Source: Chromera velia (lineage: Eukaryota; Sar; Chromeraceae). From it: a DNA stretch of 21,137 nt. The notes beneath the pieces are model-generated. The model saw only the letters and a program-made list of their open reading frames with translations. It ran no database searches and had not been told where the DNA came from. The stretch spans positions 1 to 21,137 of the forward strand of contig JAHBMJ010000409.1 in the NCBI GenBank assembly GCA_018398765.1. The letters run 5' to 3'. This document shows, in pieces, positions 9,351 to 19,304 of this stretch. Made by a program: the position numbers and the translations under genes. Position 1 is the stretch's first letter. The number at the start of each line of letters is the position of its first letter.

Positions 9351-9588
9351 ATGAAGAGGGCCTTCTGGAGAGGGCTCCGCCTCTCCTCCCACTCTCTCTG
9401 GAGGGCACAGATCGCCGCAGCAGCTGCTGCCGTGCCTGCCCTCTGTGTGTGTTGTGGCCTCGCGGCGTCTGACGACAGAGACCCTTCTAGGCCCCCCTTT
9501 TCCTTTTCCTTTTCATTTGGGCAGTGGTCTCTGCATCCGCTTTCTTTCATTGTGGGGAGCCGTCCGGTTTTTGCACAGGGGTCCAGAA
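9351..9588 (+). other. Possible N-terminal leader of the SecA-like protein
   Basis: The first ~40 residues start basic ([10 protein letters not shown]) and are followed by the hydrophobic run [20 protein letters not shown], as in a signal peptide or anchor. A Phe/Ser-rich stretch (FSFSFSFG) comes next, then the motor's helical leader from about residue 80 ([16 protein letters not shown]). A bipartite plastid leader would have this order, but the acidic DDRD after the hydrophobic run is not typical. The stretch 9525-9588 could alternatively be intron ending in TTTTTGCACAG, in which case this leader is not translated. Confidence 0.3.
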
Positions 9589-16630: not shown

Positions 16631-19304
16631 TGACTTTCTGCCTGCCTGCAGGTTCTTTGCTCCCACCCTCGCCCCCTGTGCCCGCGTGGCTTGTGCGTTT
16701 CTCTTCTTTTCGGGTGCCCGTCTCCTTGGGTCTCCTGAGCTTGTGAGGGGTCTCTCTGCTCCGGCCTCGGGAGGGTCCTCTCACTGGTGGCCGTCCCTCT
16801 CGCGTGCCTCTCAGGACAGAAAGAAAAAGAAGAAAAAAGACGAGGGAGATCCTGAAGTCTCTGTCGACACCACAGCTGCAACAAGAGAAGGTCCAGAATC
16901 ACACCCCGTTCTGGACGCATATCTAGAGGGGGTCATGGAGGCCCTCGCACCCCTAGTAGATCCCCCCGAGTTGCTTGAAGGGGGGGAGAAGGTGAAGGGC
17001 AGTCACTCGGCAGAACACATCTTCCTGGAGTCCCTTATTCGAACAGCGGTGGTCCGACAAGCAAGGACACTCGCGGCCCTGGTGCCTGAGAGCACGGCGG
17101 CAACGACCCCGGAAGAGGCTCGGCGTGACGGTTTGACTTGTGGGACCGCTCTTTCCTCCGCTGTTGAGGAGACGGGAGCTGTCGGGTTCCTCCGTTCAGC
17201 GCTGCACTCCACAACGAATGCCGTCAAGTTCGCTGCAGAGGTTGTGGGGGGTATTGGCCCGGAGAGTGAATACACAGTACCGATTCGGAACAGATTGCTG
17301 AGAGAGTTTGAGGCCTCGGAACCACTACAAAAGAGAGTCGATGTCAGTCTGTTCCAAGCCCCCGATAACAGAGACGTGGTTGCTAACAGTATTCGCAGTG
17401 CGATAGGAGACGGGAGCAGTGCGGGAAGGGCAGAAGATGCTGCAGAGAGCAGTCGCGTGCGTCGTAGTCTGGAGGTTTTGCTTGAGGAAGGCGGCGGTGT
17501 GTTGCCCGAAGTGCGGATGTCTGTGCCTGAGGAAGAACACGAAGAGTACACAGGGAAGAGAACGATGGAAGAGGAGAGGAGACCGTCGATCCAGAATTTC
17601 AGGAGAGTGGTTGCAGAACAGGTTGGTCAGATGGATTGGGGGGCTCTGTCGGAAATTGTTGTCCCGTTTTTTTGTGTTGTTGCTTTTTTCCTTCCGGCAC
17701 TCGTCTTTCTTTTTTCTGCGTTTTCGCTTTCTTTGAATGATTCGCGTTTCGAGGGAAAAAATGCCACTGACCCTATCTTTGTCGCCTCGTCGTGTCTCCT
17801 CTATCGACTTCATACGCCCCCGCAGAGCGTTCCTCGCATCTTTGAGACGGACATCTAGAGGGACGAACTTCAATCCTCTTCCCTTTTTCTTCCCGTGTGG
17901 ACTGCTGCTGTCTCCCCTTCCCCCCTTTCCCCTCCCGTTCCAGGTCAACAGGGCAGTGAGTGACTCCGTGGAGGCTGCAAAGAGGGGGCTCTGTCCTGAC
18001 ACGGAACAATGGGAAGAAGGGTGGGTGGGTGGGTGGGGGAGGTGCAGAATGGGAAAGGGTGCGGGTGAATGCTGGGGGGTCAATTTTCTCTGTGTGTTTT
18101 TTTGATAGGTTCTTGATCCATTTCCTTGTGATTCTGGTTGCTATTCACACATTTCTTCCCGAAACAAATGCAAACAGGCGGACGCGCAGAGACTCCGGCG
18201 TACATGCATGCCAGCCCACTCGCTCACTCGCATGCATTCAATCAATTGGATCCCCCATGCACGTCTTCATTCATTCATTCATTCATTCATCCATTCATTC
18301 ATTCATTCATTCATTCATTCATTCATTCATCCATTCATCCATTCATTCATTCATTCATCCATTCATTCATTCATTCATTCATTCATGCCCGCATGCAGAT
18401 GGGAGGACTTCTTTTTCACTTCGAAGCACAGGCTGATGGTGTGGGACGACGATTTCGGGACCAGTGTGGAGGCCTCTGTGGAAGAACTGTGGAAGATGGC
18501 ACAGGCACTCGCGGGCACAGACGGGCTTAGCAATCCCCAGCAGCAAGCAGAGGGAGGGGGCGTGGAAGGGGGGCCGGGCGAGGAGAGGGCGAAGGGAATG
18601 CTCAGAGATCTAGTAGTCAGGTCGCAAGGTGTGTTAAGCTGTTTATTCATTGCCTTTTTTTCTCTTTTTTGTGTCATTTTGCCCTTTTGTCGTTCTTCTC
18701 TTTCCTCTGTTTTTCTTTGCCAACTGGTGTGAGCACCTTTCTCTCTCTATATATATATATCTATCTATCTATCTATCTGTGTGTGTGTGTGTGTGTGTGA
18801 GTGAGTGAATGTCCAGATAGAATTTGACCCCGGTTTTCTCCTTTCACTGCACCGTGTGCAATTGCAGGTGGACGTCCCGTACCTGCCGAGCAGGGAGGGC
18901 TGGACGGTGTGGTGGAGCGTCTCTGGCTGGACGGGAAGTACCGTCTCCGTACGGCCGTGGAGAGGGCAGAGACCGAGAGGGGGAGGCTGCTGGACATCTG
19001 GACGTCCCAACTCTGGCAGCAGGAGTCCGCCCGGGTCCTCGCAACCCTCACCGGGGTGCTGCACTCTCTTCTGAGGGACAGACTACTGGGGGCTGTGGAG
19101 CGCTCTGCAGGTTTGTTACCGTCTCCTGAAGCATCTGAGTGGGCCATCAGGGCAAGAGAGAAGAGGGCAGCTGAACTGCGGGACCTGTACCGACGTTCGC
19201 AAACACTTGAGGAGCCCGCGTCTACATCGGACCGGCTTCAAAAAGAAACAAGCGAAGCGGTGAAGGATGCTAACCAGGATTTAGGTTTGAATTCGAAAAA
19301 TTGA
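9351..19304 (+). CDS. SecA-type DEAD motor protein with TPR-like repeat and long C-terminal extension (16 exons, 1631 aa)
   Basis: The exons are 9351-10148, 11014-11106, 11515-11598, 12032-12136, 12383-12480, 12672-12983, 13296-14120, 14329-14512, 14809-14930, 15219-15281, 15604-15935, 16175-16340, 16652-17621, 17944-18020, 18399-18628 and 18868-19304. Every junction is GT-AG and phase-compatible, and the total is exactly 1632 codons. SecA family members are ATP-driven preprotein translocases; bacterial forms run about 850-900 aa. Here the motor spans about residues 185-700: TGEGKT at 216-221, DEVD at 324-327 (split by an intron), a GLSGTLG turn at 503-509, GRGTD at 643-647, and GRAARGGD at 679-686. 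This matches the large SecA-like proteins I recall from ciliate nuclear genomes better than plastid SecA. The role is unknown. The N-terminus is uncertain: exon 1 might truly begin near 9589 after GCACAG, with earlier exons upstream. The last codons (from about 19285) run into AT-rich DNA, so the 3' end may also be wrong. Confidence 0.8.
10381..10970 (+). repeat. ~590-bp purine-only microsatellite field (AAAC, GAAA, GGAA) in SecA-like intron 1
   Basis: AAAC repeats (10381-10405) pass into alternating blocks of GAAA and GGAA and then an irregular A/G-only stretch up to about 10970. There is almost no pyrimidine on the transcribed-sense strand for about 550 bases. The long Phe/Ser/Leu and Lys/Glu/Arg frames across it on both strands are translations of the repeat, not genes. 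The intron acceptor (CCTCCCAG, 11006-11013) follows 40 bp later with its own pyrimidine tract. Confidence 0.95.
11107..11151 (+). other. Assembly gap inside a poly-G run at the 5' end of intron 2
   Basis: Nineteen N bases (11119-11137) are flanked by uninterrupted G runs on both sides, directly after the donor CAG|GTGG. The true length of the G tract is unknown. The exon upstream (11014-11106) is intact, so the gap does not affect the protein model. Confidence 0.95.
14809..14880 (+). other. TPR-like helix-turn-helix repeat in exon 9
   Basis: Residues 834-857 of the model, [20 protein letters not shown] onward to ALD, fit the tetratricopeptide consensus: G-N at positions 8-9, a small residue before F, then A-x2-C-Y-x2-A-x3-D. 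TPR units form helical hairpins used for partner binding. Only one clear unit is seen, but the preceding exon (14329-14512) is strongly helical and charged and the following exons are Ala/Arg/Gln-rich helices, so degenerate units may flank it. Confidence 0.6.
16571..16627 (+). repeat. TTTC/TC pyrimidine microsatellite upstream of the exon 13 acceptor
   Basis: TTTC units pass into an uninterrupted (TC)n run ending 24 bp before the acceptor CCTGCAG at 16645-16651. It sits where a polypyrimidine tract is expected and probably serves as one, in greatly extended form. Confidence 0.9.
18265..18386 (+). repeat. (TTCA)n microsatellite ending 12 bp before a 3' splice site
   Basis: About 120 bp of TTCA units, with occasional TCCA variants, lead almost directly into CCCGCATGCAG, the acceptor of exon 15 (exon starts at 18399). 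The [12 protein letters not shown] frame through it is repeat translation. The array occupies the branch-point and pyrimidine-tract region of intron 14. Confidence 0.95.
18739..18800 (+). repeat. Compound CT/TA/TCTA/GT microsatellite in intron 15
   Basis: Consecutive short arrays of CT, TA, CTAT and GT occur within the last intron of the SecA-like gene, about 65 bp before its acceptor (ATTGCAG at 18861-18867). Confidence 0.9.

What the first reader, a model, noticed from the sequence alone, without database searches (positions are those of the whole stretch)
9351..19304. SecA-type motor fused to TPR-like and long helical sequence in a 16-exon nuclear gene
All catalytic SecA motifs are present, but the protein continues about 900 residues beyond the motor, with a TPR-like unit and no recognised C-terminal domain, and the preprotein-binding insertion looks short. 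A eukaryotic SecA that is not the standard plastid enzyme raises the question of what it moves: a preprotein, a membrane-bound client, or nothing (a repurposed ATPase). Motifs and phases are seen directly. Similarity to large SecA-like proteins of ciliates is recollection. The function is open.
Basis: partly seen in the sequence, partly recalled or inferred. Interest (0 to 1): 0.8.

Follow-up and report, generated by a model that had tools for sequence, protein, structure and literature searches.

The report
Third SecA-like motor in alga nucleus
This is an intron-rich nuclear gene, probably of an alga, for a SecA-like ATPase that is not the plastid protein-export enzyme but belongs to a little-studied side branch known from protists, arthropods and mostly intracellular bacteria, of unclear function.

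Summary
A codon model trained on exons 1-7 prefers the predicted frame in all 9 later exons. The motor is SecA-type (SecA_DEAD E=1.7e-29) but not a canonical SecA: 141 bits against a cut-off of 862, no SecA_SW match, and a profile of SecA-like motors beats a canonical one, 375 to 156 bits. In trees it falls with 18 or 33 SecA-like proteins, largely of intracellular bacterial lineages, 100/100, apart from SecA proper and from the plastid-encoded and a canonical nuclear SecA of the same genome; grouping it with canonical SecA is rejected (p 0.00016, 0.003, 0.035 in three row sets). A 'eukaryotic secA' clade (hits in insects, Daphnia, Tetrahymena, slime mould; transfers into Wolbachia and Amoebophilus) is in print (PMC3639933). 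So: a new member of a known kind. The TPR unit is collinear with relatives but statistically weak; the preprotein-binding insertion is not short (179 residues; E. coli 180). Likely mechanism, inferred: an ATP-driven polypeptide remodeller or translocator without a dedicated SecY.

The parts
9351..10148 (+). exon 1: N-terminal leader (hydrophobic about residues 19-40), start of NBD1 with Walker A TGEGKT (residues 216-221)
11014..11106 (+). exon 2: NBD1
11515..11598 (+). exon 3: NBD1; Walker B is split ADE|VD between exons 3 and 4
12032..12136 (+). exon 4: end of Walker B, start of the insertion at the PPXD place
12383..12480 (+). exon 5: insertion
12672..12983 (+). exon 6: end of insertion, return to NBD1 (residue 445 onward aligns with B. 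subtilis SecA 312 onward)
13296..14120 (+). exon 7: motif III GLSGTLG, NBD2 with GRGTD and [10 protein letters not shown], first post-motor helices
14329..14512 (+). exon 8: post-motor stretch with the LERKWMNWM element shared with relatives
14809..14930 (+). exon 9: most of the TPR-like unit (residues about 827-858)
15219..15281 (+). exon 10: tail (weakest coding signal)
15604..15935 (+). exon 11: tail
16175..16340 (+). exon 12: tail
16652..17621 (+). exon 13: second most hydrophobic stretch of the protein (residues about 1062-1092), then a lysine-rich stretch and more tail
17944..18020 (+). exon 14: tail
18399..18628 (+). exon 15: tail
18868..19304 (+). exon 16: C terminus and stop TGA 19302-19304

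Best explanation
An apparently intact nuclear gene (host most likely the chromerid alga Chromera velia) for a member of the SecA-like side branch of SecA ATPases, probably the 'eukaryotic secA' kind reported from protists and arthropods and found, often as giant proteins, in largely intracellular bacteria. Shown: SecA-type motor core (NBD1 and NBD2) with its catalytic motifs, an insertion of normal length where SecA has its preprotein clamp, no wing/scaffold match, a long tail with a weak TPR unit. Inferred: it hydrolyses ATP as SecA does and pulls on or remodels a polypeptide held in the clamp; the tail takes the place of the parts by which SecA docks on SecY and selects or tethers the client; the N-terminal hydrophobic leader takes it to the secretory route or the plastid.
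For: Pfam SecA_DEAD 1.7e-29 and P-loop_SecA 8.9e-9. Profile of 11 SecA-like motors (this protein not among them) 375 bits against 156 for a profile of 8 canonical-side rows; held-out controls: plastid SecA 126 vs 379, C35 SecA 134 vs 471, L053 594 vs 207. Trees: with SecA-like rows 100/100 in 31 rows and 46 rows. Holding it with all 12 canonical-side rows is rejected, p-AU 0.00016 (46 rows) and 0.035 (31 rows), and 0.0029 with 11 such rows in 39. Motif III is GTLG as in 33 of 35 relatives (15 of 17 if the 14 found by a pattern holding GTLG and the 4 from plasmids are left out) against GTA in 9 of 10 canonical-side rows. Coding signal in all exons. 9 of 13 relatives match part of the SecA preprotein cross-linking domain at E<=1. 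The model of a relative, L029, matches SecA far better than other SF2 motors (E 5e-24 against 1.6e-7; highest TM, 0.57, with SecA bound to SecYEG, 3dl8).
Against: The protein itself has no SecA_PP_bind match up to E=1, so polypeptide handling rests on relatives. The model is of a relative, mean pLDDT 71.5, tail poor. Tail homology is weak: 0 of 3000 shuffles, but 16 of 1000, 31 of 5000 with a negative score and 50 of 2000 in other set-ups, and 6 of 116 control windows as high. No eukaryotic relative was compared directly, so the tie to the published eukaryotic clade is indirect. The row is long (branch 1.6-2.0) with deviant amino acid make-up. Deep SecA-like rows L034 and L036 score between the two profiles (334 vs 274, 310 vs 250), so the border is not sharp.
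Confidence: 0.6

Rival explanations
1. A divergent plastid (thylakoid or envelope) SecA that works with plastid SecY.
For: An N-terminal leader with a hydrophobic stretch (the most hydrophobic windows start at residues 19-22) could be a signal peptide before a transit peptide.
Against: Trees and AU tests (pairing with the plastid SecA is rejected outright); 141 bits against an 862-bit cut-off; plastid-encoded SecA on C213 and a canonical nuclear SecA on C35 are already there.
Confidence: 0.03
2. A recent transfer from a bacterial endosymbiont, rickettsia- or legionella-like.
For: All relatives that these collections could give are bacterial or from viral contigs; 8 of the 12 loci are Rickettsiales, Legionellaceae or Parachlamydiales (intracellular life style recalled).
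Against: 15 introns; the row lies outside the 30 SecA-like rows of its subclade (94/89; 83/87 with 24 rows, not firm), not inside a subgroup of them, though in the first tree it sat with three of them at 80/53; a eukaryotic clade is in print.
Confidence: 0.12
3. A repurposed SF2 ATPase that no longer handles polypeptides but nucleic acid, or nothing.
For: No preprotein cross-linking domain match in the protein itself, no wing/scaffold match; SF2 helicases are the next structural matches of the relative's model.
Against: Insertion of normal length; 9 of 13 relatives match part of SecA_PP_bind at E<=1; SecA structures are by far the best matches.
Confidence: 0.2
4. Two genes wrongly joined: a motor (exons 1-7) and a separate protein (exons 8-16).
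For: No transcript data; exons 10-16 have no family match.
Against: Motor, W..W element and TPR unit occur in the same order in single bacterial reading frames; the open frame and codon signal run through all exons.
Confidence: 0.07

Closest known systems
'Eukaryotic secA' genes and their copies in Wolbachia (wBol1_1091, wBol1_1092), Amoebophilus and phage WO (PMC3639933, PMC5062602; passages read)
   Same: SecA motor in an unusually long protein (wBol1_1091 4488 nt, wBol1_1092 11,829 nt), clade separate from bacterial SecA, present in eukaryotes including Tetrahymena
   Different: [quoted passage not shown] sequences not compared here, so the shared clade is inferred
SecA-like proteins of bacteria (Candidatus Megaera polyxenophila 1589 and 5225 aa, Candidatus Bandiella woodruffii 2966 aa, Legionella geestiana 2947 aa)
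   Same: Motor 26-28% identical (E 1.6e-49 to 2.9e-29), GTLG motif, no SecA_SW match in the three scanned whole, post-motor W..W element and TPR unit in order
   Different: Three of the four are much larger; some have other domains (HEAT, LysM); the hydrophobic hairpin of several of them is not detected by profile here
Canonical SecA (E. coli, B. subtilis) and plastid SecA
   Same: NBD1, NBD2, Walker and GRGTD motifs, insertion of equal length
   Different: No PP_bind or SecA_SW match, 141 bits against a cut-off of 862, other clade
Secondary SecA_DEAD proteins without SecA_SW in planctomycetes and others (PMC4452313, passages read)
   Same: SecA motor without wing/scaffold domain; one spirochaete SecA there has TPR repeats
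   Different: No sequence of that paper was compared; two PqqD-linked bacterial proteins used as stand-ins (my inference that they are similar) fall with canonical SecA

Membership tests
Canonical SecA preprotein translocase ATPase | SecA-type NBD1 and NBD2 with catalytic motifs | tested here: met
Canonical SecA preprotein translocase ATPase | Score above the curated SecA cut-off | tested here: not met
   best 141.2 bits, cut-off 862
Canonical SecA preprotein translocase ATPase | Preprotein cross-linking domain (PF01043) | tested here: not met
   no match up to E=1; controls E. coli 9.1e-41, plastid SecA of the same genome 4e-20
Canonical SecA preprotein translocase ATPase | Wing and scaffold domain (PF07516) | tested here: not met
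   no match; E. coli control 2.1e-72, but the plastid SecA also gives none, so a miss alone does not exclude it; relatives' tails against canonical tails by profile: nothing
Canonical SecA preprotein translocase ATPase | Place inside the SecA clade | tested here: not met
Canonical SecA preprotein translocase ATPase | Translocates preproteins through SecY | not testable with these tools
   the SecY-family matches listed are plastid SecY (C213) and three pieces on C432 that read as Sec61 alpha (label recalled)
SecA-like branch | Clade separate from canonical SecA | tested here: met
   100/100 with 18 or 33 SecA-like rows; profile 375 vs 156 bits
SecA-like branch | Common clade with the published insect, ciliate and Wolbachia genes | not testable with these tools
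   no such record among those listed; PMC3639933 read as passages
SecA-like branch | Protein longer than SecA, no SecA_SW | tested here: met
   1631 aa, no SecA_SW match; relatives' frames 986-4051 aa against 851-1110 for the low-scoring SecA of the same genomes
SecA-like branch | TPR unit after the motor | tested here: inconclusive
   collinear but not significant in every set-up; TPR_1 in 3 of 13 relatives at E<=1

The most novel reading that the evidence does not exclude
The complex plastid or secretory system of a chromerid alga uses a third SecA-type motor, of eukaryotic/endosymbiont rather than cyanobacterial descent, brought in by its own leader and working without a bacterial-type SecY on a second membrane or a membrane-bound client; the giant SecA-like proteins of intracellular bacteria would then be copies of a host machine.
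Probability: 0.13. Interest if true: 0.8.

Novelty: new member of a known kind. Interest (0 to 1): 0.45.

Why it matters
SecA-like genes of this kind have been in print since 2012-2013 from Amoebophilus, Wolbachia and arthropod genomes; the passages I read report no test of function. An intron-rich, apparently intact member in an alga that also keeps a canonical nuclear and a plastid-encoded SecA suggests that the branch can be a settled nuclear gene, helps to ask which way it moved between hosts and their bacteria, and offers a non-pathogen in which its place in the cell and its client can be found.

Tried and rejected
Plastid or thylakoid SecA: rejected by trees, AU tests and curated cut-offs. 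Short preprotein clamp: rejected by length. Bacterial contamination: rejected by 15 spliceosomal-type introns. C terminus cut by an AT-rich insert at 19.3-19.8 kb: the stretch gave only its own place in the genome and lies before a minus-strand frame, so no sign of an insert. Hydrophobic hairpin shared with bacterial giants: no profile match; only position and hydropathy agree. Single-protein scan of genome contigs: none. Phage records searched for phage WO copies: none among the 16 and 21 records listed. PsbO leader as a control for plastid leaders: only inner exons found, dropped. First AU test (p 3.3e-5): confounded, because it also forced three canonical-side rows out of their clade; replaced.
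Full report
What was checked. 288 open combinations exist among the sites offered, so single junctions (for example around exons 14 and 15) remain open by a few residues. A codon log-odds model trained only on exons 1-7 scores the predicted frame best in 9 of 9 of exons 8-16 (exon 10 only barely, 0.007), and all 15 introns negative in all three frames. The coding signal thus runs over the whole length; no transcript data were available.

Host. The window lies on contig C408 of a 177.8 Mb assembly of 4040 contigs. 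Another contig, C213, carries a SecA that reads through with TGA as Trp (14 TGA in the stretch translated, two of them before the gene) and a SecY with in-frame TGA. A plastid that encodes secA and uses TGA for Trp, with a genome of this size, points to Chromera velia; that name is recalled and comes from no call.

The motor. Pfam finds SecA_DEAD (E=1.7e-29, residues 114-510) and P-loop_SecA (8.9e-9), nothing significant after residue 700; TPR_1 at 832-857 has E=0.18, below its cut-off. The best solved relative is B. subtilis SecA (1.2e-30). All core motifs are there. No match to the preprotein cross-linking domain or the wing/scaffold domain was seen; E. coli SecA gives 9.1e-41 and 2.1e-72 in the same library, and the alga's plastid SecA gives 4e-20 for the first but, like this protein, nothing for the second. 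NCBIfam SecA models match at 3.3e-41 but with 141 bits against a cut-off of 862. The distance Walker B to motif III is 179 residues; nine canonical-side bacterial rows have 161-190, a tenth from a phage record 278, the plastid SecA 171.

Copies. A search of the whole genome with the motor listed 8 matches, all exons of this gene; the SecA_DEAD family search listed three loci, this one, C213 and C35. Both tools score only the best candidates, so 'single copy' means as far as searched.

Relatives. A protein search of plasmid records found 123 records, 40 listed. The highest scores were Candidatus Megaera polyxenophila (177 bits, annotated 'SecA-like domain protein'), Candidatus Bandiella woodruffii (167) and Legionella geestiana (136); listed SecA proper had 77-107 bits in one piece and up to 133 as a sum of two pieces, so the third is not far ahead. 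Their proteins have 1589, 2966 and 2947 aa, and Megaera has a second one of 5225 aa next door. An alignment of the middle of these motors (A2) found 12 loci in the collection of 84,980 species genomes and 2 in viral contigs. Of the 12, eight are Rickettsiales (three, one of them placed), Legionellaceae (one) or Parachlamydiales (four); the rest are a Bacteroidetes, two gammaproteobacterial and one unplaced genome of unknown life style. A single pattern carried that scan, so it is insensitive. In 11 of those genomes (the twelfth locus, L035, shares a genome with L034) SecA-like matches score 88.8-298.9 bits in frames of 986-4051 aa; one further match per genome, taken as canonical SecA by size and score, has 48.1-70.2 bits in frames of 851-1110 aa; three weak pieces (37.8, 27.6, 26.4 bits) lie in other long frames. 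In the order of Bandiella 26 of 262 genomes have a match of 112 bits or more (the next best is 75.8), while 246 of 262 have some match at E<=1e-10. In the order of the Legionellaceae locus it is 18 of 143 at E<=1e-23.

Placement. In a 31-row tree the protein lies with 18 SecA-like rows, 100/100, against 12 canonical-side rows that include the plastid SecA and a canonical nuclear SecA (contig C35, a rough chain of exon pieces) of the same genome; within, it sits with three rows at 80/53 only. In a 46-row tree (two near-copies dropped of 48) the 12 canonical-side rows are again one side, 100/100, and the protein is sister to 30 SecA-like rows (94/89). With nine rows dropped, near-copies and long or cut ones, 24 SecA-like rows exclude it with 83/87 only. 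Holding it together with all canonical-side rows is rejected: p-AU 0.00016 (46 rows), 0.035 (31 rows) and 0.0029 (39 rows); pairing it with the plastid SecA is rejected outright. An earlier test (p 3.3e-5) was confounded and is not used. It is a long branch with deviant composition, so its exact place is unsure. Independent of a tree, a profile of 11 SecA-like motors gives it 375 bits and a profile of 8 canonical-side rows 156; the plastid SecA gets 126 and 379, the C35 SecA 134 and 471; the deep SecA-like rows L034 and L036 get 334 and 274, 310 and 250. Motif VI reads QAFGR in 18 of 34.

The tail. Relatives share, after the motor, a W..W(L) element and a TPR unit; this protein shows the same order. 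A profile of nine relatives scores the 190 residues after the motor at 6.6 bits; 0 of 3000 shuffles reach it (2058 were reported by the program, best 5.6), and none of 57 windows from further down the tail. Other set-ups are weaker: 16 of 1000 shuffles reach the score with the whole tail, 31 of 5000 with 25 relatives, where the score is negative, 50 of 2000 by plain alignment to the consensus, with 6 of 116 windows from elsewhere in the tail as high, and hhalign P 0.0027 and 0.085. I call the TPR unit probable, not shown. TPR_1 is found in 3 of 13 relatives at E<=1. Several relatives carry a hydrophobic hairpin further on; a profile of it does not find it here, although residues about 1062-1092 are the second most hydrophobic stretch. 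Exons 10-16 have no family match.

Structure. A relative (L029, Parachlamydiales MAG, 850 aa, alignment of 10) gave mean pLDDT 71.5 and pTM 0.70, with a 37-residue helix right after NBD2 and a poorly modelled helical tail. The first 36 PDB matches are all SecA, E 5.1e-24 to 2.6e-15; the highest TM-score by query length, 0.57, is to SecA bound to SecYEG (3dl8). Other SF2 motors follow from 1.6e-7, TM about 0.3. 9 of 13 relatives match SecA_PP_bind at E<=1, best 1e-7; SecA_SW is not among the 25 of 27 families listed for them.

What it does. Shown: motor core, clade, coding signal, leader-like N terminus (the most hydrophobic windows start at residues 19-22). Inferred: ATP-driven pulling or remodelling of a polypeptide, as in SecA. 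The helical wing of SecA is implicated in its contact with SecYEG (PMC4452313, passage); this protein lacks a match to that domain, and the genome search for SecY listed only the plastid SecY and one nuclear gene whose pieces read as Sec61 alpha (label recalled). I therefore favour a motor that holds its client or membrane partner by its own tail rather than through a dedicated SecY. A nucleic-acid motor is the main rival.

Known or new. PMC3639933 (2013; passages read) describes long secA-domain genes in Wolbachia wBol1 with full-length matches only in insect proteins, names further hits in mosquitoes, an ant, Daphnia, Tribolium, Tetrahymena, Polysphondylium and Salpingoeca, reports that the eukaryotic homologues form a strongly supported clade apart from prokaryotic SecA, and infers two transfers into bacteria (Wolbachia, Amoebophilus). 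PMC5062602 (passages) lists SecA among phage WO domains closer to eukaryotes. PMC3482391 (passages) notes SecA-like domains in Amoebophilus effectors; PMC4256840 (passage) has a SecA DEAD-like Legionella protein in a table of the section on horizontally transferred eukaryotic proteins. A search for SecA with Chromera gave three papers, seen as listing only; none has a title about this gene. Further searches. So the kind is known; I saw no test of its function and no report of this member. Interest 0.45.

Noticed in passing
window 5520-8648, minus strand: Open frames that read like a MYND-type zinc finger (in the 5520-6164 frame) and, in a 528-aa frame at 7062-8648, a SAP-like N terminus; names are recalled, from no call.
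   Followed up: no
window 10380-10970 (intron 1): About 590 bp of almost pure purine (GGAA/GAAA) in intron 1.
   Followed up: no
window 11119-11137 (intron 2): 19 N inside a run of G: probably an assembly gap; does not touch an exon.
   Followed up: no
window about 18266-18386 (intron 14): ATTC tandem repeat.
   Followed up: no
window 19305-19850: AT-rich stretch (GC down to 0.19) after this gene, before a minus-strand open frame; a genome search gave only its own place.
   Followed up: yes
L006 5579-8083 (contig C213): Plastid-type SecA of the same genome needs TGA read as Trp and gives no SecA_SW match in Pfam.
   Followed up: partly
L007 and L008 (contig C35): Canonical nuclear multi-exon SecA, about 50% identical to E. 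coli SecA over its best piece.
   Followed up: partly
L012 and L016 (CP113870.1): Two SecA-like genes stand 21 bp apart on a Megaera plasmid, one of 5225 codons.
   Followed up: no
G228: Three equal-scoring copies of a SecA-like gene, each listed in two pieces with a TGA; only counted.
   Followed up: no
P0002, P0003, P0004, L025, L026, L037: SecA-like giants share a hydrophobic hairpin with the pattern G..Q...G...eGi.Di...f.W, about 320-750 residues after motif VI.
   Followed up: partly
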